Source: Bacteroidota bacterium (GTDB lineage Bacteria; Bacteroidota; Bacteroidia; JABEUT01). Taken from it: 38,735 nucleotides of DNA. Position numbers and translations under genes: made by a program. Where the stretch lies: positions 1-38,735 of the forward strand of contig JABDGY010000018.1 of the NCBI GenBank assembly GCA_013285805.1, read 5' to 3'. Below, piece after piece: positions 1 through 23,681 of this stretch. How positions within the stretch are numbered: the first letter of the stretch is position 1; the number at the start of each line of letters is the position of its first letter. The notes below the pieces were generated by a model. The model saw only the letters and a program-made list of their open reading frames with translations. It did not search any database and had not been told where the DNA came from.

Positions 1-2160
1 GAAAAATATCAATCGTTTACAGTTGCTCCATTATTTTCTGTAGGCCATTCAACGGATAATGAAAGACGTCACCTTGCTGTCACACCTTTGTTCTGGCATA
101 TAAAAAATGGAACCTATACAAGTAATACGCTTATAACATTTTGGTGGAACCGTGAGCTAATAAGTTATCATATTAATGCTAACGGCGTTAAAATTGCCGA
201 CACAAATTCAGCTACTTATGTTTTCCCGCTTTTCTGGTCGCATAAAAATGAAAACGGGCAACAGACTATTGTCTTCCCGCTTCTATGGGGTATAAGAGAC
301 AGAGAGAAGCAATCGCTTACATTATTTCCTCTCTTTTCAATGGGCCATTATAACGATGGGGCAAAAAATTACGTTGCGGTTACTCCGTTTTTCTGGCACT
401 TCAAAACATCATACGGGCATACCAATGTTTTATTTCCATTATGGTGGAATTCAAAAAAAATGAACTACCACGATACATCCGCAACAAACATAATATTCCC
501 TTTATACTGGTCTCGTCACAGTTGGTATTCCAATTACAACATATTCTTTCCTTTTATATGGGATATTAAAACCAAAAGCTACCATTCATTCACCTTTGAG
601 CCGTTTTTCTCAACAGGCAAATCAACAGATGGTAAGCGGAGGCATATAGCCATTACACCATTATTCTGGCATTATAGCGATAGCAACCAAATTAAGAATA
701 GGCTATTCCCCATTTGGTGGTACAAGAAGGATATTTATAAAAATGATACAAATATTACCAATGTATTATTCCCCATATACTGGGCATACAAAGGGCATAA
801 CTACAATAATAAAGTACTATTCCCTATAATTTGGGTATTAAATAATGGAAGGTACAAATCACTAACTATTGAACCATTATTCTCAGTCGGCCATTCAACT
901 GACAACAAGAAAAAGCATATTGCAATTACACCCTTATTCTGGCATGTAAAAGATACACTGGGTTATAAAAACAGGCTGTTCCCCATTTGGTGGAATAATA
1001 AGCGGATAGAATACCAATATGCTAATGGTAAAGAAATAGTGTACGATACTAATTGTACAAATGTAATTTTCCCGCTATACTGGTCGTATAGCAACAATCA
1101 CAGGACAAACAAAGCATTTGCGCCATTCTTTTGGGAGCATAAGGATAGCCTAAGTAAATCGGTAACCGCTATTCCATTATTCGCTTATGGTAATTCAATA
1201 AAGGAGAAGAAATCATATTTGGCTATCACACCCTTATTCTGGCATATAAAGGATTCAGATAAATACAGTAATACACTAATCCCTTTCTGGTGGAGTAAAT
1301 CAAGGGTAATATATAAGTGGAATGGGAAGAGAATTATACCGGTTGATACGGAACATACCACTGAAGTTTTCCCACTCTACTGGTCGTATCATAGCAAATG
1401 GGAAAGCAATAAAGTGTTCATTCCTTTTCTATGGAGTCATAAAGATAGCCTCAGCAGGTCATTTACGTTTGCTCCCTTCTTTTCATTCGGCAATTCTGCA
1501 AAAGAAAAAAAATCATACCTCGTTGCCACGCCCCTATACTGGCATTTTAAAGATAGTGTTGGTTACAGTAATACCTTTTTCCCTTTGTGGCGAAGGCGGA
1601 TGCGCGTAAATTATAAATGGAACGGGTTTAAATATGTTCCGTACGATACATCTCATGCTACCGAAGTTACTCCGCTATTTTGGTCGTATCACGATAAAAC
1701 TCAAAATTACAAAGTGTTGTTCCCACTATTGTGGAGTTTTAAAGACAGCGTTCGTAAGTCATTTACTTTTGCCCCGCTTTTTTCCGCCGGGCATTCACCA
1801 GTAAGTAAGAAATCGTATCTGGTGGCAACACCGTTATTCTGGCATTTTAAAGACCGCACTTCGCATACTAATTTATTTTTCCCTTTCTGGTACAATCATC
1901 AGCGAATTGAATATGCTATGAAAAACTCAAAAATGGCACTTGTTGACACCATAAGGGCTACTTATGTTTTCCCGTTTTATTGGTCTTATAGGGATATGGA
2001 TGTGCTCAGGAATATCTTCTTCCCTATACTTTGGAGTAATAAAGATAAATTTCATAGTTCGTTTACATTGTTCCCTTTCTTTTCATCAGGCCGTTCAACC
2101 GATAATAAAAGCAGTCATTTAATTATTACTCCCTTGTTCTGGAGTTTGAAATCACATGGT
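1..2160 (+). repeat. Protein-coding tandem repeats of 300 nt (100 aa) or 273 nt (91 aa)
   Basis: Repeat boundaries taken at the '(K/S)xxxSFTxxPLFSxG' motif: 1, 301, 574, 847, 1147, 1447, 1747, 2047. Unit lengths 300, 273, 273, 300, 300, 300, 300, then degenerate. Confidence 0.9.
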
Positions 2161-2817
2161 ATTATGCGCACAACATTATTCCCTCTTTTTAATACATATA
2201 AGGATACAACGGGGGAAAAAAAAATCAATGTGCTGTATGTGGCATATAGATATAGAAAAATAGCGGATAGTGTTTCGGTCAACTTTTTATGGCCTATAGT
2301 GGAATATACTCATGCAAAAGCTCTTAGATATTTCAGGATTACCCCTATAGTATGGTATAAAAAATCGCCTAAGGTCAATTACTTCACTGTGCAGCCCTTT
2401 TATTACCATGGAAAAGACACGGCTGGTGAAAGCACCCACATTTTATGGGAGCTATTTGTTCACAAAAGGCAGTTTAATAAAATGAAATCTACCCGTTTTT
2501 TATGGAGAACAGTTGTGGCTAATAGGTATGATAATGGAGACCATGAATTCAGAATATTACAGTTTGTATATGTAAATGCAAAGAAAGACAGTACCACTGA
2601 ACATGGTATATTCCCTTTCTACCACAAAGTTGTACAGAAAAACGGGGATATGTCGTTCTCAACAATGATGGGTTTTTATCATCATATCAGGCGTCAGGTA
2701 CCTGATACTAAGGAGTATTACGAGGAGGTCAAAGTACTGTGGTTCATAAGGTTACTATCGAACGCTAAGGCACTTAAAGCAAAAGGTATTGATATGAAGC
2801 AGAAGAAACTTATATAG
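1..2817 (+). CDS. Hypothetical tandem-repeat protein with FPLFW/FPxWW/PLFSxG motifs (5'-truncated at window edge)
   Basis: Frame +1 is open from base 1 (EKYQSFTVAPLFSVGHSTDNERRHLAVTPLFWH...), so the listed start at 88 is internal. About 7 full repeats plus degenerate C-terminal copies; stop at 2817. Confidence 0.9.
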   Translation, partial: EKYQSFTVAPLFSVGHSTDNERRHLAVTPLFWHIKNGTYTSNTLITFWWNRELISYHINANGVKIADTNSATYVFPLFWSHKNENGQQTIVFPLLWGIRDREKQSLTLFPLFSMGHYNDGAKNYVAVTPFFWHFKTSYGHTNVLFPLWWNSKKMNYHDTSATNIIFPLYWSRHSWYSNYNIFFPFIWDIKTKSYHSFTFEPFFSTGKSTDGKRRHIAITPLFWHYSDSNQIKNRLFPIWWYKKDIYKNDTNITNVLFPIYWAYKGHNYNNKVLFPIIWVLNNGRYKSLTIEPLFSVGHSTDNKKKHIAITPLFWHVKDTLGYKNRLFPIWWNNKRIEYQYANGKEIVYDTNCTNVIFPLYWSYSNNHRTNKAFAPFFWEHKDSLSKSVTAIPLFAYGNSIKEKKSYLAITPLFWHIKDSDKYSNTLIPFWWSKSRVIYKWNGKRIIPVDTEHTTEVFPLYWSYHSKWESNKVFIPFLWSHKDSLSRSFTFAPFFSFGNSAKEKKSYLVATPLYWHFKDSVGYSNTFFPLWRRRMRVNYKWNGFKYVPYDTSHATEVTPLFWSYHDKTQNYKVLFPLLWSFKDSVRKSFTFAPLFSAGHSPVSKKSYLVATPLFWHFKDRTSHTNLFFPFWYNHQRIEYAMKNSKMALVDTIRATYVFPFYWSYRDMDVLRNIFFPILWSNKDKFHSSFTLFPFFSSGRSTDNKSSHLIITPLFWSLKSHGIMRTTLFPLFNTYKDTTGEKKINVLYVAYRYRKIADSVSVNFLWPIVEYTHAKALRYFRITPIVWYKKSPKVNYFTVQPFYYHGKDTAGESTHILWELFVHKRQFNKMKSTRFLWRTVVANRYDNGDHEFRILQFVYVNAKKDSTTEHGIFPFYHKVVQKNGDMSFSTMMGFYHHIRRQVPDTKEYYEEVKVLWFIRLLSNAKALKAKGIDMKQKKLI

Positions 2818-3228: not shown

Positions 3229-4107
3229 ATGAAAATAAACAAAACAGAAAACATGAAAGAAAACCTCGGCGCCGTAAATGAAAAATCGGCTGAAATGATA
3301 AAATCATTTATCGAAAGTAGCGCAAAACAGTTTGACATTACAATGAATGCTAGCAAAGCAATATTTGAAGCCATTACAAAGCAATATTCCTTTAAAGGAG
3401 CAGTAGGCGAAAAGACTGATGAAGCAAAGAATGGTATTCAGGAAACAATTGCTACTGCAAATAAATGGTTCTCAGAGTCTTCGAAGATTATGATGGACCT
3501 ATACGAAAAACAATCAAAGCATTTATTGGATTCGTACAATAGTTACATGAACCTTGCGTATGAAGGCCTGAATAAAATAAATGAAAACGAACATGGTGGC
3601 GCTTTCCGCCCGCAGGTGGAGATGTTTATTAAAAACCTTGAAGATTCAGCTATGATTTCCAAGAAAATGTTCAGCACAGTAATTTCTTCGCTGAATAATG
3701 AAGATGACAAAGTATATGTAACTGAGGTACTTGATATGATGCTCAACACATATAATAAGCAGACCGAAGAACTGGTTAAGTTCAGTAAAAACCTGTTTGA
3801 TACAGCACAGATTGAAAAATCTATAAGCCTGAACAAGGAAATTTCGGAAAAGCTGCAAAAGGACATGGAAAGGAATTTTGAGGCATCAAAAAAACTCATC
3901 AGCGCTATTGCCGATACATATAAAGAAACCGATTTATCTGCTAAGGCAGGTAGTAAAATGCTCGATGAAATTTTTGCCGAAATTGACGTGGTAACCAAAA
4001 ACAATATAAAATTCTGGAACAACTGGTTCGAGCAGGTACGCAACAGCAAAGCATCGGAAAAATCGGAAAAAACTGTCTCTTCTTCAGTAAACGGTCACAC
4101 ATCTTAA
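3229..4107 (+). CDS. Phasin-like PHA granule-associated protein
   Basis: Long amphipathic helical protein (SAEMIKSFIESSAKQFD...), directly upstream of a second similar ORF and phaC. Confidence 0.7.
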   Translation: MKINKTENMKENLGAVNEKSAEMIKSFIESSAKQFDITMNASKAIFEAITKQYSFKGAVGEKTDEAKNGIQETIATANKWFSESSKIMMDLYEKQSKHLLDSYNSYMNLAYEGLNKINENEHGGAFRPQVEMFIKNLEDSAMISKKMFSTVISSLNNEDDKVYVTEVLDMMLNTYNKQTEELVKFSKNLFDTAQIEKSISLNKEISEKLQKDMERNFEASKKLISAIADTYKETDLSAKAGSKMLDEIFAEIDVVTKNNIKFWNNWFEQVRNSKASEKSEKTVSSSVNGHTS

Positions 4108-4145
4108 TCCCCCCTATATAACTTTTCAAATTTTAAAACACAATC

Positions 4146-4766
4146 ATGAAAAACACAACAATCAACAAACAAGCTGAAGCGCTGAAAAAAAGCATAGACA
4201 GCGTTTCTGAAAGCTCAAAGGAAAGCATTAAGTCTTTAATCGAGACTAATTCAAAACAATTCGATAAAGCGCTTGATGTAAACAAAAAAACATTCGACTC
4301 AATAAGCAAAATGCTTTATGAGAAAGAAATGGATCCTACCATTGTTAGCTCATTTAAAACTACTTTCGGTAAAGGCATCAAATTATCGGAAGATGTAATT
4401 GATTCAGTAATTGATTCGCATACCAAACGTATGGACCTCTCTATCGATTTTACAACCAGGTTCATGGAGGCTTTAAGGAGTGAAGACCTTAGTACCAAAG
4501 AAGGTATGGACAAACTTATGGAACTTGTAAAGGAAAACCTCGATAAGTCAACCGAACTTTCTATGAATAATATGGAAAAGATTGTAAATGTTTATAACGA
4601 GCACCTCAATCTTGCCCTGAATTTCAATAAGAAGTTTGCTGATAATATCAATTCACAGGTAGTATCAATGTTTAAACTTCAGAAGAAGAATATTGATACA
4701 TTTTTCTCACTCGACATGGTATCGGAGTGGTGGAAAAATGCAAGCGAAGAAAAAACAAAAGCATAG
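4146..4766 (+). CDS. Phasin-like protein, paralogous to the preceding ORF
   Basis: ESIKSLIETNSKQFDKALDVNKKTFDSISK resembles EMIKSFIESSAKQFDITMNASKAIFEAITK of the upstream ORF; next to phaC. Confidence 0.72.
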   Translation: MKNTTINKQAEALKKSIDSVSESSKESIKSLIETNSKQFDKALDVNKKTFDSISKMLYEKEMDPTIVSSFKTTFGKGIKLSEDVIDSVIDSHTKRMDLSIDFTTRFMEALRSEDLSTKEGMDKLMELVKENLDKSTELSMNNMEKIVNVYNEHLNLALNFNKKFADNINSQVVSMFKLQKKNIDTFFSLDMVSEWWKNASEEKTKA

Positions 4767-4786
4767 TTTTAGTGTGTCAAAGCTAA

Positions 4787-4831
4787 ATCCCTGTAACCTG
4801 TCCCCTTACCGGTTGCAGGGATGGCTTTTTT
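4787..4831 (+). terminator. Rho-independent terminator between phasin genes and phaC
   Basis: ATCCCTGTAACC...GGTTGCAGGGAT stem followed by GGCTTTTTT. Confidence 0.8.
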
Positions 4832-4856
4832 AATGAACCGGACAAATTGTATAACC

Positions 4857-4879
4857 CGTCGGTATTTTAAATACGGACG
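4857..4879. promoter_or_regulatory. 11-bp inverted repeat upstream of phaC (candidate operator or 5'UTR hairpin)
   Basis: CGTCGGTATTT-T-AAATACGGACG, one mismatched pair, 15 nt before the phaC ATG. Confidence 0.55.
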
Positions 4880-4893
4880 AAATTTTATTTATA

Positions 4894-6660
4894 ATGGACA
4901 AGGATAATAAAGAAATTCAGGCTGATTTCAGCAAATTGTACGAGACCTACTCCACCGCCGGAATAGAGATATTTAATAAGGTCATGAAGGAGTCTCCTGA
5001 TTTTATTAATGATAGCATAGAAACTTCACAGGACTATTCGAGGTTTTTTTCAGAAGTTTCTTCTGATAAGGAAGGTATTGCTAAAATGCAGGCCTATTAT
5101 ATCGATTTTATAAAAAAACAGCAGGACCTTTTTAAAAACCTGGCCGAGCACCAGGTAGGGAAGAAACCCGATGCCGTTATAAACCCTGCACCTGAAGATA
5201 AACGCTTCAAAGCCGAAGAATGGAATACACTTCCTTACTTTGATTTTGTAAAGCAAAACTACCTGCTTATATCTGAGCTGCTTACCAATATTGTAAGCTC
5301 AACTGACGTTGATGACAAGCTTAAAAGGAAAATTGCCTTTTACACCAAACAATATATTGATGCTGTATCGCCTGCCAATTTTTTTGCTACCAATCCTGAA
5401 GCAATGAAGCTGGCCTATGAAACAAAGGGGCAAAGCCTTATAGATGGCTTTAATAACATGATGACCGATTTAAAGGATGGGCGCATTAACCAGACTGATA
5501 CTTCAGCTTTTGAATTGGGTAAAAACCTGGCCACTACACCGGGCAATGTTATTTTTGAAAATGAACTTATTCAGCTAATACAATATACACCCACCACTAA
5601 AAAGATTTATGAAACACCTGTGCTTGTTATTCCTCCGTGGATTAATAAATACTATATACTCGACCTGAAACCTGAGAACTCATTTGTGAAATTTGTTGTT
5701 GACAGTGGATTTACCACCTTTCTGATTTCATGGAAGAACCCTACAGCCGAAATGAGGAATGTAGCCTTTGAAGACTATGTTGAGTCAGGAGTACTTAAGG
5801 CTACAGAGGTTATGCAGTCTATTACAGGCGCAAAAAAGATAAATACTGTTGGTTACTGCCTGGGTGGAACTTTGCAGGGTATTACACTGGCTATTTCACA
5901 TTCAAGAAAAAAAGTGCCTTTCGAATCGGCTACCTTCCTGGCTTCTATGATTGATTTTTCTGACCTGGGCCCTATGGGCGATTTAATTGACGAGGCCCTT
6001 GTAAGGAAAATAGAAGAAGGGGAATTGAAAGAAAACGGTATGATGCGTGGAAAGGTAATGGGTAACGCCTTTAACGTAATTCGTTCAAATGATCTGATAT
6101 GGAATTATGTTACTAATAATTACCTGAAAGGTAAAAAACTTACACCATTCGATGTGCTGTATTGGAATGGAGATAATACTAACCTGCCCGCTGCTATGTA
6201 TGGTTACTACCTGCGCTATATGCTATACGAGAATAAATTGAGCAGGAAAAATGCTTTGCGTATTTGCGATACTCCTATTGATATCGGAAAAATTGAAATA
6301 CCCACATTTATTGTAGGTACGACTGAAGATCATATATCACCTGCTGTTACTACCTTTACTACAACCGAACTTGTAAGCGGCCCGGTTGAATTTGTACTGG
6401 GTGGTTCGGGCCACGTTATGGGAATAGTAAATCACCCTGCTAAAAAGAAATATGGTTATTTTGCAGGCGGAGAATTGCATAAAGGATTTGCAGAGTGGAA
6501 AAAAACTGCAGCCCAGCATGAAGGAAGCTGGTGGGATCCGTGGACAAAATGGTTAAAGGGAATGTCGGGTAAACAAATAGACGCCCCTAAGACAGCGGGT
6601 AATACAAAATATAAAGTTATTGAACCTGCACCGGGACGATACGTAAAAGAGAAATGCTAA
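4894..6660 (+). CDS. phaC: Class I-like poly(3-hydroxyalkanoate) synthase
   Basis: Lipase-like box GYCLGGT, TEDHISP (Asp) and GSGHVMGIVNHP (His) triad context, 588 aa. Confidence 0.93.
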   Translation: MDKDNKEIQADFSKLYETYSTAGIEIFNKVMKESPDFINDSIETSQDYSRFFSEVSSDKEGIAKMQAYYIDFIKKQQDLFKNLAEHQVGKKPDAVINPAPEDKRFKAEEWNTLPYFDFVKQNYLLISELLTNIVSSTDVDDKLKRKIAFYTKQYIDAVSPANFFATNPEAMKLAYETKGQSLIDGFNNMMTDLKDGRINQTDTSAFELGKNLATTPGNVIFENELIQLIQYTPTTKKIYETPVLVIPPWINKYYILDLKPENSFVKFVVDSGFTTFLISWKNPTAEMRNVAFEDYVESGVLKATEVMQSITGAKKINTVGYCLGGTLQGITLAISHSRKKVPFESATFLASMIDFSDLGPMGDLIDEALVRKIEEGELKENGMMRGKVMGNAFNVIRSNDLIWNYVTNNYLKGKKLTPFDVLYWNGDNTNLPAAMYGYYLRYMLYENKLSRKNALRICDTPIDIGKIEIPTFIVGTTEDHISPAVTTFTTTELVSGPVEFVLGGSGHVMGIVNHPAKKKYGYFAGGELHKGFAEWKKTAAQHEGSWWDPWTKWLKGMSGKQIDAPKTAGNTKYKVIEPAPGRYVKEKC

Positions 6661-6696
6661 CTAAATAAAATTATAAACTACAGAGATAATTAATGT

Positions 6697-7464
6697 ATGA
6701 GGGTAAAAAATAATAAGGTCGCTTTGGTTACAGGTGGCACAGGCGGGTTAGGAACTGCAATATGCGAACGCCTTTACAAAGATGGATATTCAGTTGTGGC
6801 AAATTACAAAGACTTTACGAAAGCCATAAAATGGCGCGAAGAAGCAAAGAAATGGAGGGAGAGTGAACTGAAAATGGGTATGGATATTAATATAGTGGAA
6901 GGCGATGTGGCGAGTTTTAAATCGTCGCAGGATATGATGAAAGAGATTACTGATGAAATAGGTCCGGTTGATGTACTGGTTAACAATGCCGGTATTACCC
7001 GCGACGCTCCTTTACATAAAATGACACCCGACCAATGGTTCGAGGTGATGGATACAAACCTTAACAGCGTATTTATATGCTCTCGCCTTGTAATTGAGGG
7101 CATGCTTGCAAAAGGATGGGGAAGGATTATAAATATTTCTTCTGTTAACGGACAGAAAGGTGCTTACGGACAGACTAATTATTCCGCAGCCAAATCGGCC
7201 ATGTATGGTTTTTCTAAATCGCTGGCGCTTGAAGTGGCCAAGAAGGGAATTACAGTAAATTGTATCTCTCCCGGTTATATAGGCACTTCAATGGTTATGG
7301 CTATTCGTGAAGATATACGTGAAAAGATTGTAGCCCAGGTTCCTGCGGGGCGTTTCGGTAAGCCTGAAGAAATCGCTGATATGGTTTCTTACCTGGCTTC
7401 TGATGATGCAAGCTATATCACCGGTGCCAATATGGCAATAAACGGTGGCCTGCACATGTATTAG
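6697..7464 (+). CDS. phaB: SDR-family acetoacetyl-CoA reductase (PhaB-like)
   Basis: TGGTGGLG nucleotide-binding motif, NNAG, S-YxxxK (YSAAKSAMYGFSK), VNCISPGYI; next to phaC. Confidence 0.88.
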   Translation: MRVKNNKVALVTGGTGGLGTAICERLYKDGYSVVANYKDFTKAIKWREEAKKWRESELKMGMDINIVEGDVASFKSSQDMMKEITDEIGPVDVLVNNAGITRDAPLHKMTPDQWFEVMDTNLNSVFICSRLVIEGMLAKGWGRIINISSVNGQKGAYGQTNYSAAKSAMYGFSKSLALEVAKKGITVNCISPGYIGTSMVMAIREDIREKIVAQVPAGRFGKPEEIADMVSYLASDDASYITGANMAINGGLHMY

Positions 7465-9374: not shown

Positions 9375-10121
9375 ATGAAAAGAGTATTTCTGTTTTTACT
9401 GGTTGGAATTATAGCAATGGCATTTGCAGCCGATGATCAGGCTAAAGATATTGTTACAAAAGCAGAGAACAATATAAAAGGGCATACCTCTCAAACAGAT
9501 ATGACCATTGAGATTATACGCCCTACCTGGAAACGTTCGTTGAGCTTAAAAGGATGGTCGAAGGGTGAAGATTATTCCATGAGTGTAGTAACGGCCCCCG
9601 CAAAAGACGCAGGAACGGTTTTCCTGAAACGGTTAAAAGAAATATGGAACTGGGTGCCAAGTATTGAGCGTGTGGTAAAGCTACCTCCTTCTATGATGGC
9701 CCAAAGCTGGATGGGAACGGATTTTACCAATGATGATTTGGTAAAGGCATCTTCACGCATTGATGATTATACCCACAAAATTCTTGGCGATACTGTGATT
9801 GAAGGCCGCAAGTGCTGGAAAATTGAAATGATACCATTACCGCAGGCTGCGGTGGTATGGGGCAAGCTAATTATGTTCATTGACCAGAAAGATTACCTTG
9901 AATTAAGGCTTGAGTTTTACGATGAAGATTTTAAGTTGGTGAATATTCTGCAATGCTCTGATGTGAAGATAATGGGTGGAAGAACCATTCCGGCAAAAAT
10001 GGAAATGATACCTGCGGGCAAAAAAGGGCAGGAGACAGTTATTATATATAACAGCGCCATTTTCGATAAGCCTATAGAGGATAGTTTCTTTACAACCGAT
10101 AACATGAAAAAAGTAAGGTAA
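9375..10121 (+). CDS. LolA-like outer-membrane lipoprotein-sorting protein (COG2834-type)
   Basis: Signal peptide, then IVTKAENNIKGHTSQTDMTIEIIRPTWKRSLSLKGWSKGEDYSMSVVTAPAKDAGTVFLK...WNWVPSIERVVKLPPSMM. One nt after tetR stop. Confidence 0.85.
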   Translation: MKRVFLFLLVGIIAMAFAADDQAKDIVTKAENNIKGHTSQTDMTIEIIRPTWKRSLSLKGWSKGEDYSMSVVTAPAKDAGTVFLKRLKEIWNWVPSIERVVKLPPSMMAQSWMGTDFTNDDLVKASSRIDDYTHKILGDTVIEGRKCWKIEMIPLPQAAVVWGKLIMFIDQKDYLELRLEFYDEDFKLVNILQCSDVKIMGGRTIPAKMEMIPAGKKGQETVIIYNSAIFDKPIEDSFFTTDNMKKVR

Positions 10122-11338
10122 TGTATTTTAAGCTTGCATGGAGAAATATGTGGCGCAGCAGGCGCAGGACGATTATCACAATCTCGTCTATTTTCTTTGC
10201 CATGATATTTGCCATACTCATGCGTGTTATTATTATCGGAATGTTCGATAAAATGATCAGCGATACTGTCAGCATGTCATGCGGGTACTTGCAGATTCAT
10301 CACAATGGATACTGGGAAAATAAATCGGTTGACAGCACATTTGAGGAAACGCCACGCGTTACATTTATTCTTGATAAGGAGAAGGAAATTACGGCATGGA
10401 CACCACGTTTAGAAACATTTGCGTTAGCATCGTCGGGTGAACGGACCAAAGGCATGCTGGTTATAGGTATTGATCCGAAGAAGGAAAATGCAATATCAAA
10501 ACTCTCGCAAAAATTAGTTGCCGGAAAATACCTGCAGGATAGTGATAAGTACATATTGCTTGCCCAGGGTTTGGCTGAGTACCTGAAACTAAAGGTGAAT
10601 GATACGGTTATTTTGCTGGGACAAGGGTACCAGGGTAGTATGGCAGCGGCAAAGTACCCCATTAAAGGAATAGTAAAGCTTGGAATTCCAGAGATGAATA
10701 AGGGGATGGCGTGGTTACCCATGGCATGTGCAAGAGATTTCCTGAGCACCGGGGCAAGGTATACTTCCATATCTATAATGGTGAATAACAGGAATAATCT
10801 TGCAGCGTTGAAACAAAACATAAAAAGACAAATTGGGGGTAATGAATACGAGGTGATGACCTGGCAGGAAATGGTTCCTGAACTTGACCAATTATTTCAG
10901 GCAAAGCTGGGCCAGAATGAAATTATGTCCGGGGTACTATATCTGGTCATTGCGTTTGGAATTTTTGGAACGATATTAATGATGCTTAACGAGCGTATGC
11001 ATGAATTTGGTATTCTTATTGCAGTGGGAATGAGAAAAGGTATTCTGGCCAGGGTAGTAGTTATGGAAATGATATTAATGTCGATAGTAGGGACTATATT
11101 GGGCATGGGCGGAGCTTTCCCTATTGTACTGTATTTTAGGGTACACCCTATTCATATGAGCGGGGTTTGGGGTAAAGAAATGGAGCAATTCAATTTCGAA
11201 CCCATCCTGCAGCCGTCTATGGACTTTTCAAATTTTATTATTCAGGGATATGCAGTATTGTCAATTGCAGTTCTGTTATCGACTTATGCCATTTATAAAA
11301 TATATCGAATAAAAGCTATAGCAGCTATAAACAGCTAA
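10121..11338 (+). CDS. FtsX/LolE-family ABC transporter permease
   Basis: LAWRNMWRSRRRTIITISSI N-terminus, periplasmic domain, C-terminal FtsX TM region (MMLNERMHEFGILIAVGMRKG). TAATG overlap with upstream gene. Confidence 0.92.
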   Translation: MYFKLAWRNMWRSRRRTIITISSIFFAMIFAILMRVIIIGMFDKMISDTVSMSCGYLQIHHNGYWENKSVDSTFEETPRVTFILDKEKEITAWTPRLETFALASSGERTKGMLVIGIDPKKENAISKLSQKLVAGKYLQDSDKYILLAQGLAEYLKLKVNDTVILLGQGYQGSMAAAKYPIKGIVKLGIPEMNKGMAWLPMACARDFLSTGARYTSISIMVNNRNNLAALKQNIKRQIGGNEYEVMTWQEMVPELDQLFQAKLGQNEIMSGVLYLVIAFGIFGTILMMLNERMHEFGILIAVGMRKGILARVVVMEMILMSIVGTILGMGGAFPIVLYFRVHPIHMSGVWGKEMEQFNFEPILQPSMDFSNFIIQGYAVLSIAVLLSTYAIYKIYRIKAIAAINS

Positions 11339-11456
11339 TTAATTTCAGATTTAGAATTTAAGGAATATGATTTATAGCTCTTAAATAAACTAACAAATAT
11401 CATAACCATGAACACAGTAAATCTTAAATCCGAAATCTCAAATCTTAAATAATCAC

Positions 11457-12668
11457 ATGCTTTTTAAAGTGGCCTGGAGAAATATTTGGAGAAACAAGAC
11501 ACGCAGTATCGTTGTAATTGCATCGGTGGCTGTTGGTTTATTTGCCGGCATGTTTATGATGGCATTTTTTATGGGGCTGGTGAAGCAGGAAATAAGCAGC
11601 GCCGTTGAAACACAACTGTCGCATATTCAGATTCATAATCCTGCTTTTGCCGATGATAAGGAAGTAAGCGACACCATAGCGAATGCAGCAGCCATTATAG
11701 AAAAACTCAAGAATGATTCAACCGTAAAAGGAGTATCGGGCAGGGTGGTAGCTGCCGGAATGATATCTTCTTCATCGGCCGCAATGGGTGTGGAAATACA
11801 TGGTATTAACGCGGCTGACGAAAAAAAAGTAAGCAGTATATCGGGAGAAATGAAAGAAGGCATTTATTTTTCAGGAAAAAAGAATGAAATAGTGATAGGG
11901 CAAAAACTTGCTGAAAAACTTGGAGTGAAACTACACAGTAAAATAGTGCTTACGTTTCAGTCTGTTACCGGTGATTTAACTGCAGGCTCTTACCGTATTG
12001 CGGGGATTTTCCGCTCGCGTAATTCAGCTTTCGATGAAATGACGGTATTCACGAATGATAATGAACTGGGGCAACTTCTGGGCACCAGAAGCGGCATACA
12101 TGAAATTGCAGTTATTTTAAAAGACGATAAAAATGTTAATAACGCAGCGACCGAATTAAAAAAACAAAACCCGGCATTGCTTGTTCAAACATGGACGGAG
12201 CTTTCTCCTGAAATGGCACTTATTACAGGTATTTTCGACCAGATAATGTATATAATTATCGGCATTATTCTTCTCGCCCTTATGTTCAGTATTATAAATA
12301 CTATGCTTATGGCTGTACTGGAACGCCAACGTGAATTTGGTATGCTAATGGCCATAGGTATGAACAAACCAAGGGTGTTTTTTATGGTTGTTCTTGAATC
12401 GGTTATGCTTACGTGCGCCGGTATACCGGTAGGGATATTACTTACCATTGGTGTGGTAGAATATCTGGCTAAACATGGTATTGACATGTCAGCATTTTCT
12501 AAGGCATTGTCACAATTCGGATTCAGTAATATTGTGTACCCCGAACTGCAAACTTCAATGTTCCTTCCTATTAGTTTAATGACCGGACTAGCCGCTATTT
12601 TATCGGCCATTTATCCAGCCGTAAAAGCATTACAATTTAAACCTGCAGTTGCAATACATAAAATATAA
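11457..12668 (+). CDS. FtsX/LolC-family ABC transporter permease
   Basis: VAWRNIWRNKTRSIVVIASVAVGLFAG and MLMAVLERQREFGMLMAIGMNKPRV. Confidence 0.92.
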   Translation: MLFKVAWRNIWRNKTRSIVVIASVAVGLFAGMFMMAFFMGLVKQEISSAVETQLSHIQIHNPAFADDKEVSDTIANAAAIIEKLKNDSTVKGVSGRVVAAGMISSSSAAMGVEIHGINAADEKKVSSISGEMKEGIYFSGKKNEIVIGQKLAEKLGVKLHSKIVLTFQSVTGDLTAGSYRIAGIFRSRNSAFDEMTVFTNDNELGQLLGTRSGIHEIAVILKDDKNVNNAATELKKQNPALLVQTWTELSPEMALITGIFDQIMYIIIGIILLALMFSIINTMLMAVLERQREFGMLMAIGMNKPRVFFMVVLESVMLTCAGIPVGILLTIGVVEYLAKHGIDMSAFSKALSQFGFSNIVYPELQTSMFLPISLMTGLAAILSAIYPAVKALQFKPAVAIHKI

Positions 12669-12674
12669 TTTATC

Positions 12675-13373
12675 ATGAGCTACGTTATTGAAGCACATAA
12701 CCTGACAAAAATTTACAACCCTAAAACCATACCGGTGTATGCCGTAAATGGTGTTGACCTGCAGGTAGAGGAGGGAGAATTTACCGCATTGGTTGGCCCG
12801 TCGGGTTCGGGTAAAACTACTTTACTCAATCTTATAGGTGGATTGGATTACCCCACAACGGGAGATGTGAAAATAGCAGGAGTTGACATTACAAAAATGA
12901 GCGAGAACAAGTTGATTGATTTCCGTCTGCAGAATATAGGTTTCGTTTTCCAGGCTTACAACCTGATACCCGTTCTAACGGCCAGTGAAAATGTGGAGTT
13001 TGTAATGCTTATGCAAAAGAAACCTAAGCGTGAAAGAGAACAACATGCAATAGAACTGTTGAAAGAAGTTGGACTTTCCGACAGATTAAACAATCGCCCT
13101 ACTGAATTATCGGGTGGGCAACAACAGCGCGTAGCAGTTGCAAGGGCACTGGCATCAAAACCACGATTTATTCTTGCTGATGAACCTACTGCTAACCTTG
13201 ATTCAAAATCGACGGAGAATTTGCTGGATATTATGGCAAAGCTTAATAAGGAAGATAAAATGACATTTATTTTTTCTACGCACGACCAACGTGTAATTGA
13301 TAAGGCTAGGCGTGTAGTTACGCTGGTAGATGGTAAAATAGTTTCAGATGAGAAGCAAACTCAAAGTTCATAA
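12675..13373 (+). CDS. LolD/MacB-type ABC transporter ATPase
   Basis: Walker A GPSGSGKTT, Q-loop, LSGGQQQRVAVARAL, Walker B FILADEPTANLD. Confidence 0.96.
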   Translation: MSYVIEAHNLTKIYNPKTIPVYAVNGVDLQVEEGEFTALVGPSGSGKTTLLNLIGGLDYPTTGDVKIAGVDITKMSENKLIDFRLQNIGFVFQAYNLIPVLTASENVEFVMLMQKKPKREREQHAIELLKEVGLSDRLNNRPTELSGGQQQRVAVARALASKPRFILADEPTANLDSKSTENLLDIMAKLNKEDKMTFIFSTHDQRVIDKARRVVTLVDGKIVSDEKQTQSS

Positions 13374-19820: not shown

Positions 19821-21704
19821 ATGAAGAAATCTACTCGTATTTTTATAAATCTGGTTTCAGGCTTGTTCATGGTTTTGATTTGCTTGCCTGCCCTCGGACA
19901 AAACAACGTCGGTATAGGAACCAATGTTCCCGATCCTTCCTCAATAGTTGAAATGAAATCTACTACGCAGGGTATGCTAATACCGCGTATGACTGAATTG
20001 CAGATGTTGGCTATTGTGGCGCCTGCACCCAGTCTTATAATTTATAATACCGATACAAATTGTTACTTCTTTTATAATCCTGCTACAACCTTATGGCAAT
20101 CGTTATGCCGTGCTGCTGCTGTTGGCCCTACCGGCCCTACAGGAGCTAACGGAGTTGGTTCTGCCGGCCCGACAGGCCCTACCGGCCCTGCTGATACTAC
20201 TGCCGGCCCTCCTGGTCCTACAGGCGCTGCTGGCGCACCCGGTGCTACCGGCCCTGCGGGTACTGCAGGTGTAACCGGCCCCACCGGCCCTATGGATACT
20301 GTTGCAGGCCCTGTTGGTGCTACCGGCCCTACAGGTGCGCAAGGCGCTACCGGTGTAGGTGTTGGTATTCCCGGCCCAACTGGTCCTACTGGAGCAACCG
20401 GTGTTGCAGGAACAAATGGTACTAACGGTACAAATGGAACCAACGGTACAAATGGGGTAACCGGCCCAACTGGTCCTACAGGTGTGGCTGGTACGAACGG
20501 AACAAACGGTACAAATGGAACCAACGGTACCAATGGTGTAACCGGCCCTACCGGTGCAAATGGTACTAATGGTACGAACGGAACGAATGGTACAAACGGA
20601 ACGAATGGCGTAACTGGCCCAACCGGCCCGGGTACTATATGCGGTGCAGCTACAACCGATTATGTTACAAAGTTTACTGCACCTACAACCATGTGTAATT
20701 CAATTATGTATGATAATGGAACGGCGGTTGGTATTGGTACTACAACACCTTCTACTTCTAAAGTAGGTGGTACTTCTACAGTAGGATTCAATGTATATAA
20801 CGCTACTGCTGCTGGAGGCGACCAGGAAGAATTTACAAACTTCGGTGGCAATGGGGTTGCCGTTGAAATTAATAACACCCTTACCACATGCGCGTATAAT
20901 ACAATGGAAGGTATTACACCTTATACGGGGAATACAAATATTCCATCTGGTATTTGGGGACTTGCAAGTAGTGGTTCAGGAACACAAACTGCTGTTGGTG
21001 CAACAGGTTATAATAATGGTAAAGCAGGTTACGGTGTTTATGGAGTGCTGGTAACTGCCGGGGCAGGATACGGTGGATTGTTTCTTAACGGCTTGGGTTA
21101 TACAGGCGCTTTAACAGCTGTATCAGATGAACGGACAAAAAAAGATGTCCGTGCTATTCCCAACGCATTGGCAATTATCAATAGGTTAAATGGGGTGAAC
21201 TATGAATATGATACGCAGAAGTACCCTTATCTCGGATTGGAAAACACTATGCAGTATGGTTTTATTGCACAGGATATTCAGAAAGTGCTTCCCGAATTGG
21301 TTCTTGAGAAGCAACTTGATACGTATGCATGTATACCTAGAAAATCAACTGAAGCAGTTCCGGCTCATTTTGAAACCTTCAAAACAGTAAACTACATAGG
21401 AGTTATTCCTATTCTGGTTGAAGCCATAAAAGAACAACAGAAAGAAATTGAAACCAAACAACCATCGCAGGATGTTGGTTCAGGACAACTTGTAAATGGC
21501 AAGGCACACATTGATATGGATAATTCATTCGCCCAATTGATTTCAGACCCGCAGAATGTTAAAGTATTTATTCAGCTTCAGGGCGACTGCAAAGGTGTAT
21601 ATGTTACTAATATTACATCAACAGGTTTCGATGTAGTTGAACTCAATGGCGGAACATCAGGTGTGAAATTTTTCTGGCAGGCAATTTCGGGTACTACAAA
21701 TTAA
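19821..21704 (+). CDS. Collagen-like surface protein with C-terminal S74/intramolecular chaperone domain
   Basis: Signal peptide; [30 protein letters not shown]; Gly-X-Y repeats; SDERTKKDVRAIPNALAIINRLNGVNYEYD...YGFIAQDIQKVLPELV. Confidence 0.92.
   Translation: MKKSTRIFINLVSGLFMVLICLPALGQNNVGIGTNVPDPSSIVEMKSTTQGMLIPRMTELQMLAIVAPAPSLIIYNTDTNCYFFYNPATTLWQSLCRAAAVGPTGPTGANGVGSAGPTGPTGPADTTAGPPGPTGAAGAPGATGPAGTAGVTGPTGPMDTVAGPVGATGPTGAQGATGVGVGIPGPTGPTGATGVAGTNGTNGTNGTNGTNGVTGPTGPTGVAGTNGTNGTNGTNGTNGVTGPTGANGTNGTNGTNGTNGTNGVTGPTGPGTICGAATTDYVTKFTAPTTMCNSIMYDNGTAVGIGTTTPSTSKVGGTSTVGFNVYNATAAGGDQEEFTNFGGNGVAVEINNTLTTCAYNTMEGITPYTGNTNIPSGIWGLASSGSGTQTAVGATGYNNGKAGYGVYGVLVTAGAGYGGLFLNGLGYTGALTAVSDERTKKDVRAIPNALAIINRLNGVNYEYDTQKYPYLGLENTMQYGFIAQDIQKVLPELVLEKQLDTYACIPRKSTEAVPAHFETFKTVNYIGVIPILVEAIKEQQKEIETKQPSQDVGSGQLVNGKAHIDMDNSFAQLISDPQNVKVFIQLQGDCKGVYVTNITSTGFDVVELNGGTSGVKFFWQAISGTTN
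20124..20632 (+). repeat. Collagen Gly-X-Y repeat region (GPTGPTG, then (GTN)n blocks)
   Basis: Gly every third residue, with short breaks, over ~170 codons. Confidence 0.95.
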
Positions 21705-21728
21705 TATAATCAATCCTCCTTATAAACT

Positions 21729-23681
21729 ATGAACAACATGACAAGATTAATTAGAAACGCAGCATTAGGCATCATTATGATAGCTGCTTTTTCTGTTAAA
21801 TCAGAAGCACAGAACAACGTAGGTATTGGAACCAATGTTCCTGACCCTTCGTCTATTGTTGAAATGAAGTCTAATACCCAGGGTATGCTTATTCCACGAA
21901 TGAATACCATAGGTATGAATGCTATCGCAGCTCCTGCTCCAAGCTTGATAATTTACAATACTGACTCGAACTGCTACTGTTTCTATAATGGAGGAACTTT
22001 GAAATGGCAATCGCTTTGCCAGCCTGCCGGCGCTGGTGCAGCTGGCCCTACTGGCCCAACAGGTAATGCGGGTGCTCCCGGTGCAACAGGCCCTGCGGGC
22101 TCTCCCGGCGCAACTGGTCCTGCCGGTGCTCCCGGTGCAACGGGCCCTGCCGGAACAGCAGGTGCTACGGGCGCAACAGGTGCTGCCAGTGTTGTTCCAG
22201 GCCCTACAGGCCCAACAGGTGCCGGTGTAGGTATACCGGGCCCAACAGGTCCTACAGGTGCAGCTAGTGTTGTTCCAGGTCCTACAGGCCCAACGGGTGC
22301 TGCAGGAACAAATGGTACGAATGGAACAAACGGAACAAATGGTACCAACGGAACAAATGGTACGAATGGTGCAACAGGCCCGACAGGCCCTACATGGACA
22401 CTTTCAAGTGTAACATATAATAATACAGGTACAGTAACAGTTACCGGAACAGCCGGTGGCGGAACAGTAACCAGTGGCGATGCTGCATGGTTAACTACCG
22501 GTAATACTGGTATTGTTGCCGGTACTAATTTCATAGGCACGCTTAATGCTGCTGATTTTGTAATGAAAACCGCAGGTGCTGCCGCAACCAATGAACGTAT
22601 GCGTATTACTTCTGCGGGTTTGGGTGTATATAATAATACAACCCCGATTGCAGGTGACGTATTTTCTGTTTATGGTACTGGTGTAGTAGGCGCAATAAAT
22701 GGATTAGGTACTAGTTCAATAAATGGTTATAGCAATGGTGGCGATGGTATATTCGGTGAAGATGTGGGACTTGGTATAGGTGTAATAGGTTATGGTAGTG
22801 ACAACGCTGCAACTTTCGGAAGTGGTGTTGGTGTACTTGGTGAAGCAATGGGTGAAACATTTGCAATAGATGGATACGCACCCAATAAAACAGAGGGCGT
22901 TGGTGTTTCCGGTTATGCTCCGGCTGTAGGAATGGGTATAGGTGTGTGGGGAACTGACTCAGATGGTTTTTCAGGCGTGGTTGGTAATGATTCCAAAGCC
23001 TATAATGGTGTATCTGTAACCCTTGGAGGCGCTAATGCCGGTGGCTCATTTACAGGTTTTGAGGCAGGTGTTGTTGGATATGCTTACCCTCTAACTACAG
23101 CGGTTAACTCAGAGGGTGGTTTTTTCTCAGATAGTATAAGTGCTGCAAAATATATACAAGTTAGTGTAGCCGCGTATAATGGTGGTACTAAATACAAGAT
23201 ATTAGGTAGTTCCTTAGGTGCTGTTTCTACTTCTGTAAAGGATTTAGATGACAAAGCAGTAATAATGTTCGCACCGGAAGCACCTGAAATGGTATTTGAA
23301 GACTACGGAGAAGGCCAGTTGGTAAATGGTGAGGCACAAATTTCACTCGACCCTGTTTATGCAAAGAACGTAGCCATTAATGATAAACACCCGTTACGTG
23401 TATTCATTCAATTAGAAGATGAATGTAATGGTGTGTATGTAACTGATAAAACTGCAAACGGGTTTACTGTAAAAGAACTGCATGGAGGTAATTCCAATGC
23501 CAAATTCTCATACCGCGTTGTGGCCAACGTAAAAGATGAAATAGAGAACGGAGAAGTTGTTTCTAAGAACCAGGATTTAAGGTTCCCGCTCTACCAGAGC
23601 CCTGGTGTAACAAAAATTATCAGACGCCCGCATGTTGACTATTCTAAGGCAATATTGGGTAGCAAGAAGAAACTGCAATAA
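21729..23681 (+). CDS. Collagen-like surface protein, paralogous N-terminus, no S74 domain
   Basis: Shared [40 protein letters not shown] repeats; C-terminal [17 protein letters not shown]...[40 protein letters not shown]. Confidence 0.9.
22029..22394 (+). repeat. Collagen Gly-X-Y repeat region
   Basis: [19 protein letters not shown]... then (GTN)n. Confidence 0.95.

What the first reader, a model, noticed from the sequence alone, without database searches (positions are those of the whole stretch)
1..2817. Large repeat protein built from five-motif aromatic/proline modules (PLFSxG - TPLFWH - FPxWW - FPLYWS - FPxxW)
Each ~100-aa unit has five hydrophobic aromatic strands in fixed order: xPLFSxGxSxxxKKxHLAI / TPLFWHxKDSxxYxN / xLFPxWWxxxR / TxVFPLYWSYxxxxxxNK / VxFPFxWSxKDSxxxSFT. 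At least seven full copies are visible and the N-terminus is beyond the window. Regularly spaced F-P-L-[FYW]-W strands joined by charged turns suggest a beta-solenoid, beta-propeller-like or very large beta-barrel/amphipathic surface structure. I cannot assign it to a characterised family. This is a prime candidate for an undescribed cell-envelope protein.
Basis: partly seen in the sequence, partly recalled or inferred. Interest (0 to 1): 0.8.

Follow-up and report, generated by a model that had tools for sequence, protein, structure and literature searches.

The report
Giant secreted aromatic-proline hairpin repeat protein
Some uncultured Bacteroidia carry a single gene for a very large secreted protein built almost entirely from dozens of copies of one 17-residue greasy 'FP' beta-hairpin, a family that no protein or structure library searched here describes and whose role, probably in the cell envelope, is unknown.

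Summary
Window 1-2817 is the 3' part (938 codons; the contig starts here) of a tandem-repeat gene. Seven complete units of 91 or 100 aa each carry five motifs in fixed order, then a degenerate eighth unit and a conserved ~210-aa C-terminal region. The true building block is a 17-21-residue element with an uncharged seven-residue belt (V-L-F-P-L-F-W) between polar turns. Relatives from 20 other Bacteroidia genomes (873-1830 aa when complete) show the missing front: a Sec signal peptide ending A/S-Q and a conserved FDFGxTR head. There is one gene per genome, no conserved neighbours and patchy occurrence, including absence from the window's own genus. No Pfam, NCBIfam or PDB sequence match. The AlphaFold model of the window protein failed (pLDDT 26). 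A two-unit model of a relative reached only 62.5: all-beta, two short strands per 17-mer; Foldseek found nothing at E<=1e-3 but weakly pointed to antiparallel meanders (OspA, CPAP TCP domain). Covariation moderately supports hairpins closed at the polar turn. Best reading: a secreted, envelope-associated beta-hairpin repeat ribbon with one greasy edge and one basic, length-variable edge. A solenoid, propeller or transmembrane barrel is less likely. Function is inferred, not shown.

The parts
1..2817 (+). 3' part of the repeat gene (938 aa, 5'-truncated by the contig end)
   Evidence: open frame from base 1; window = contig C18 from base 1
1..297 (+). repeat unit 1 (A-E)
298..570 (+). repeat unit 2 (91 aa)
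571..843 (+). repeat unit 3 (91 aa)
844..1143 (+). repeat unit 4 (100 aa, longer turn after motif C)
1144..1443 (+). repeat unit 5 (100 aa)
1444..1743 (+). repeat unit 6 (100 aa)
1744..2043 (+). repeat unit 7 (100 aa)
2044..2175 (+). degenerate unit 8 (motifs A and B, then diverging)
   Evidence: 2047-2295, E=2.9e-16
2176..2814 (+). conserved C-terminal region, itself derived from the repeat, ending in YYxExxxxWFIRLxSNxxxLKxKG
   Evidence: its profile also weakly matches internal repeats

Best explanation
The gene encodes a very large Sec-exported protein of uncultured Bacteroidia. It consists almost entirely of a 17-21-residue element, repeated about 30-80 times in complete members and arranged in five-element units. 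Each element probably makes two short beta-strands: one before the F-P-[LFIV] hinge and one after it. The strand after the hinge pairs antiparallel with the strand before the hinge of the next element, across a polar turn (K-[DN]-x-x-x-x-N/S). The chain would then be a long antiparallel beta ribbon. All greasy FP hinges lie on one edge, and all polar, basic, length-variable turns lie on the other. I infer that the protein sits in the cell envelope, most likely on the outer membrane or cell surface, as a structural or adhesive element. Its aromatic/proline edge would pack against itself, lipid or another hydrophobic partner, and its basic edge would face out. Shown: repeat anatomy, uncharged belt, signal peptide in relatives, single copy, patchy occurrence. 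Moderately supported: hairpin topology. Inferred: location and function.
For: Anatomy. Over 422 elements, positions -3 to +3 around P hold 0-4% charged residues, against about 20-64% at most positions outside. The common length variants differ in the polar turn, not at FP. Single-element losses (units of 74, 70 and 53 aa) leave everything in register only if each element is self-contained. Signal peptide ending A/S-Q and FDFGxTR head in the intact relatives. Two-unit AlphaFold model: best pLDDT 62.5, 20 short strands broken at each FP and each polar turn. Foldseek puts the antiparallel single-layer sheets OspA (probability 0.95) and CPAP TCP domain (0.91) among its hits. Covariation across the polar turn at register p+q=0 scores 7.8 against 3.7 for the next register. 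With a background-centred statistic on all proteins, registers 0 and -2 score 3.0 and 3.1 and the other registers at most 0.4. Pairing of whole 13-residue strands (the 'far' halves) gives no signal at p+q=0. Basic and aromatic composition: K+R 13% and D+E 7% in the window protein, 12-18% against 6-9% in the family; FWY 18-25%. No T9SS sorting domain.
Against: The usable model is of a relative, not of the window protein, and only one of five models rose above pLDDT 35. The window protein itself failed. Foldseek has no match at E<=1e-3 and all TM-scores are low. The hold-out covariation (7 proteins) favours p+q=-2 and 0 only modestly, and pairing about the FP hinge is not reproduced there. Location and function rest on inference alone; no conserved neighbour supports any pathway.
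Confidence: 0.42

Rival explanations
1. A two-sheet beta-solenoid in which each 17-21-residue element is one coil and equal positions stack in parallel.
For: Period 17-21 aa, tolerance of single-element insertion or loss, and near-constant positions are typical of solenoids. In the all-protein test the + halves of adjacent elements have q-p=0 as their top register (2.4).
Against: In-register stacking is not the leading signal for the - halves (q-p=0 scores -0.9; it scores 3.4 only in the small hold-out). Foldseek against PDB lists antiparallel folds and no obvious beta-helices among its best 50 hits. Hydrophobic residues lie on both faces of the strand.
Confidence: 0.2
2. A very large outer-membrane beta-barrel or sector of one, with each element a membrane-crossing strand.
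For: The uncharged belt is seven residues long with W/Y at its edge, flanked by polar turns; Sec signal peptide.
Against: Both strand faces are hydrophobic, so there is no polar lumen face. Five elements per unit and single-element losses would put equivalent loops on alternating sides. The C-terminus ends LKxKG rather than in an aromatic beta-signal. 'Far' strand halves do not covary at p+q=0.
Confidence: 0.13
3. A hydrophobic groove or conduit across the periplasm, working like the repeating-beta-groove lipid-transfer proteins (AsmA/TamB).
For: Five motifs per unit, strong hydrophobicity, great length, no other domain.
Against: No Pfam or NCBIfam hit to AsmA/TamB models. Intact relatives have a cleavable-looking signal peptide rather than an inner-membrane anchor. 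Single-element losses break a five-strand groove module. Few genomes carry it, so it is no housekeeping lipid bridge.
Confidence: 0.1
4. A string of beta-propellers with each unit or group of units a blade set.
For: WD40 and other propellers dominate the weak Foldseek list.
Against: The listed Foldseek TM-scores are 0.31 or less with E>=0.0095; element number per protein and per unit is irregular; no propeller model in Pfam matches.
Confidence: 0.1

Closest known systems
CPAP/TCP10 G-box (TCP domain), PDB 4bxr
   Same: Freestanding single-layer sheet of about 20 consecutive short antiparallel strands joined by tight turns (PMC3776556). The two-unit model has 20 strands in 182 residues, and 4bxr is among the Foldseek hits.
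   Different: No sequence relation; TCP lacks a hydrophobic core whereas these repeats carry seven consecutive uncharged residues; here the chain is several times longer, exported and bacterial.
Borrelia OspA single-layer beta-sheet
   Same: Antiparallel single-layer hairpin sheet of an exported bacterial protein; Foldseek probability 0.95.
   Different: OspA is much shorter and a lipoprotein (own knowledge); no sequence match; TM-score only 0.31.
AsmA/TamB repeating-beta-groove proteins
   Same: Long all-beta repeats with a hydrophobic surface in the envelope.
   Different: No profile match; signal peptide instead of inner-membrane anchor (compare PMC11014939); single-element indels tolerated; patchy occurrence.
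RHS/YD-repeat shells (teneurin)
   Same: Long runs of short antiparallel strands; mouse teneurin-3 (8r51) appears in the weak Foldseek list.
   Different: No YD/RHS profile match, no cargo or protease region, no variable C-terminal domain.

Membership tests
Any described Pfam/NCBIfam family | score above curated cut-off | tested here: not met
   no hit near a cut-off in the window protein or the relatives scanned
T9SS-secreted surface protein | C-terminal T9SS sorting domain | tested here: not met
   NCBIfam scans of the window protein and four relatives list no sorting-domain model; the C-terminus is a conserved ~210-aa region ending in KG
AsmA/TamB repeating-beta-groove | AsmA/TamB sequence domain | tested here: not met
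AsmA/TamB repeating-beta-groove | hydrophobic groove along the chain | not testable with these tools
   no confident structure
Outer-membrane beta-barrel | alternating lipid-facing/lumen-facing residues | tested here: not met
   positions -3 to +3 uncharged and hydrophobic on both faces over 422 elements
Outer-membrane beta-barrel | aromatic C-terminal residue (beta-signal) | tested here: not met
   C-termini
Beta-solenoid | parallel in-register stacking of coils | tested here: inconclusive
   antiparallel turn register stronger overall, some q-p=0 signal in subsets
TCP-like freestanding beta-meander | consecutive antiparallel short strands in one sheet | tested here: inconclusive
   model pLDDT 62.5 of a relative; Foldseek probability 0.91 but E=0.08 and TM 0.27; covariation partly agrees
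Sec-exported protein | N-terminal signal peptide | tested here: met
   seen by eye in the relatives with an intact front (no signal-peptide predictor was run); the window copy itself lacks its front

The most novel reading that the evidence does not exclude
A new giant beta-fold: a continuous antiparallel ribbon of some 60-160 very short strands, folded at a proline in every element, with one fully hydrophobic edge. It would form a tens-of-nanometres filament, sheath or lipid-embedded strip in the envelope of uncultured Bacteroidia.
Probability: 0.3. Interest if true: 0.75.

Novelty: new variant of a known kind. Interest (0 to 1): 0.52.

Why it matters
An exported protein with one 17-residue greasy element repeated up to about 80 times has no counterpart in the libraries searched. 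If the hairpin-ribbon reading holds, it extends the rare class of freestanding beta-meanders to giant size with a hydrophobic edge. The element's regularity and its tolerance of single-element gain and loss make it attractive as a designable material. It also marks an accessory, probably surface-related trait of uncultured Bacteroidia.

Tried and rejected
Full-length AlphaFold of the window protein with one relative: pLDDT 26, discarded. Relatives in viral contigs, plasmids and phages: none. Conserved operon partner: none; only pairs of close relatives share neighbours, and the PhaC/phasin genes after the window gene are not next to other copies. The first covariation attempt, with crude element typing, was too noisy; the mutual-information version with weights gave both predicted registers as top of their class but with rival peaks of similar size elsewhere. 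Weak hits (penicillin V amidase, RfaH, DUF7132, TamA, Nsp1) lie far below cut-offs or look like composition matches. Search of other phyla was not possible because a plasmid record is not accepted as a centre. Two class-level hits without a proper open frame (G059, G204) were set aside. Paper searches for the motif strings found no relevant paper. I have a vague memory of FPLFW-like repeats in other bacterial phyla; it is untested and would lower the novelty if true.

Full report
Observation. Window 1-2817 (+) is an open frame of 938 codons that runs off the start of the contig. The translation shows five motifs in fixed order: A PLFSxG, B TPLFWH, C FPxWW, D FPLYWS, E FPxxW. The A-sites are spaced 91 or 100 aa apart, giving seven complete units and a degenerate eighth. 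Across 15 units from the window and one relative, 11 columns are invariant. The elementary period is 17, 19, 17, 21, 17 aa, with 30 instead of 21 in the window's 100-aa units.

Relatives. A groundwater Bacteroidia MAG (L002) has a complete 1395-aa homologue, 45% identical. Profile searches brought 12 more carriers near that genome (13 of 393 genomes of its order, counting itself) and seven more in a class-wide sample. In that class sample the clear carriers, window genome included, are 8 of 295 genomes, in eight families; two further marginal hits have no proper open frame. The same-genus genomes listed there have no match, three of them at least 96% complete, and one search found none in the ten other members of the order. 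No match besides the window was found in a 396-genome phylum sample. The C-terminal profile finds one full match per carrier. Neighbours are not conserved. So this is an accessory single gene with patchy occurrence. The searches did not reach other phyla.

Whole-protein anatomy. Complete members are 873-1830 aa. Those with an intact front begin with a signal peptide ending in A/S-Q and continue with a conserved FDFGxTR head. The C-terminal ~210 aa are conserved and appear to derive from the same repeat, because their profile also weakly matches internal repeats. Elements can be lost singly: units of 74, 70 and 53 aa occur. Near-identical units in G423 (97% over 103 aa between its two contigs) point to recent tandem duplication or homogenisation.

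The element. Aligned on the proline, 422 elements show an uncharged belt at -3 to +3 and polar, often basic residues outside. Hydrophobic residues occupy both alternating faces near the proline. The common length variants (17, 19, 21, 30) differ in the polar turn.

Fold. AlphaFold of the window protein with one relative failed (pLDDT 26). A two-unit stretch of the relative with eight repeat rows gave one model of five at pLDDT 62.5 (pTM 0.38; the others 32-35): 20 short strands, two per element, broken at FP and at the polar turn. Foldseek found no match at E<=1e-3 in PDB or viral models. The PDB list mixes propellers with OspA, the CPAP TCP domain and teneurin. The TCP domain is a freestanding meander of about 20 short antiparallel strands (PMC3776556).

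Covariation. With elements typed by an order-aware profile, residues after the proline of element i covary with residues before the proline of element i+1 on the antiparallel register p+q=0 (7.8, next 3.7). With duplicates removed and background centred, registers 0 and -2 lead (3.0 and 3.1); in seven held-out proteins they are the two highest of nine (2.4 for -2, 1.8 for 0). Pairing within an element about FP leads in the full set (3.7) but not in the hold-out. The opposite halves ('far') show nothing at p+q=0. This supports a hairpin at the polar turn, suggests but does not prove a second turn at FP, and gives no support to one long strand per element.

Interpretation. The best reading is a Sec-exported, envelope-associated ribbon of short antiparallel strands with a greasy FP edge and a basic, variable edge. 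Location and function are inferred from the signal peptide, the composition (K+R 13%, D+E 7%, FWY 20% in the window protein) and the single-copy, patchy occurrence. No T9SS sorting domain, no AsmA/TamB match and no barrel features were found.

Novelty. No described family was matched. Giant secreted repeat proteins are a known kind; this repeat and its inferred hairpin-ribbon arrangement are a new variant, possibly a new fold.

Noticed in passing
window 3229-7464: Polyhydroxyalkanoate-like cluster right after the repeat gene: two small phasin-like proteins without a Pfam match, PhaC (4894-6660) and a short-chain dehydrogenase (6697-7464).
   Followed up: partly
window 9375-13373: LolA-like protein, two FtsX/MacB-type permeases and an ABC ATPase in a row, resembling a lipoprotein-sorting or lipid export set (Pfam run on the first two).
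   Followed up: partly
window 19821-23681: Two adjacent similar proteins sharing [20 protein letters not shown] near the N-terminus, with collagen repeats; the first also has an endosialidase-type chaperone domain (Peptidase_S74).
   Followed up: partly
L040 3-1340 and L041 10313-11352 (G423): The two contig ends inside what looks like one repeat gene carry nearly identical units (97% over 103 aa), as if the tandem array broke the assembly.
   Followed up: no
L038 8583-12524: One member has a long stretch built mainly of alternating C/D/E-type elements instead of the five-element unit, showing that the unit order is not obligatory.
   Followed up: no
L035 8967-11597 and L046 611-3223: Two carriers have homologous lipoproteins (similar to gliding/T9SS SprE from memory) a few kb from the repeat gene.
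   Followed up: no
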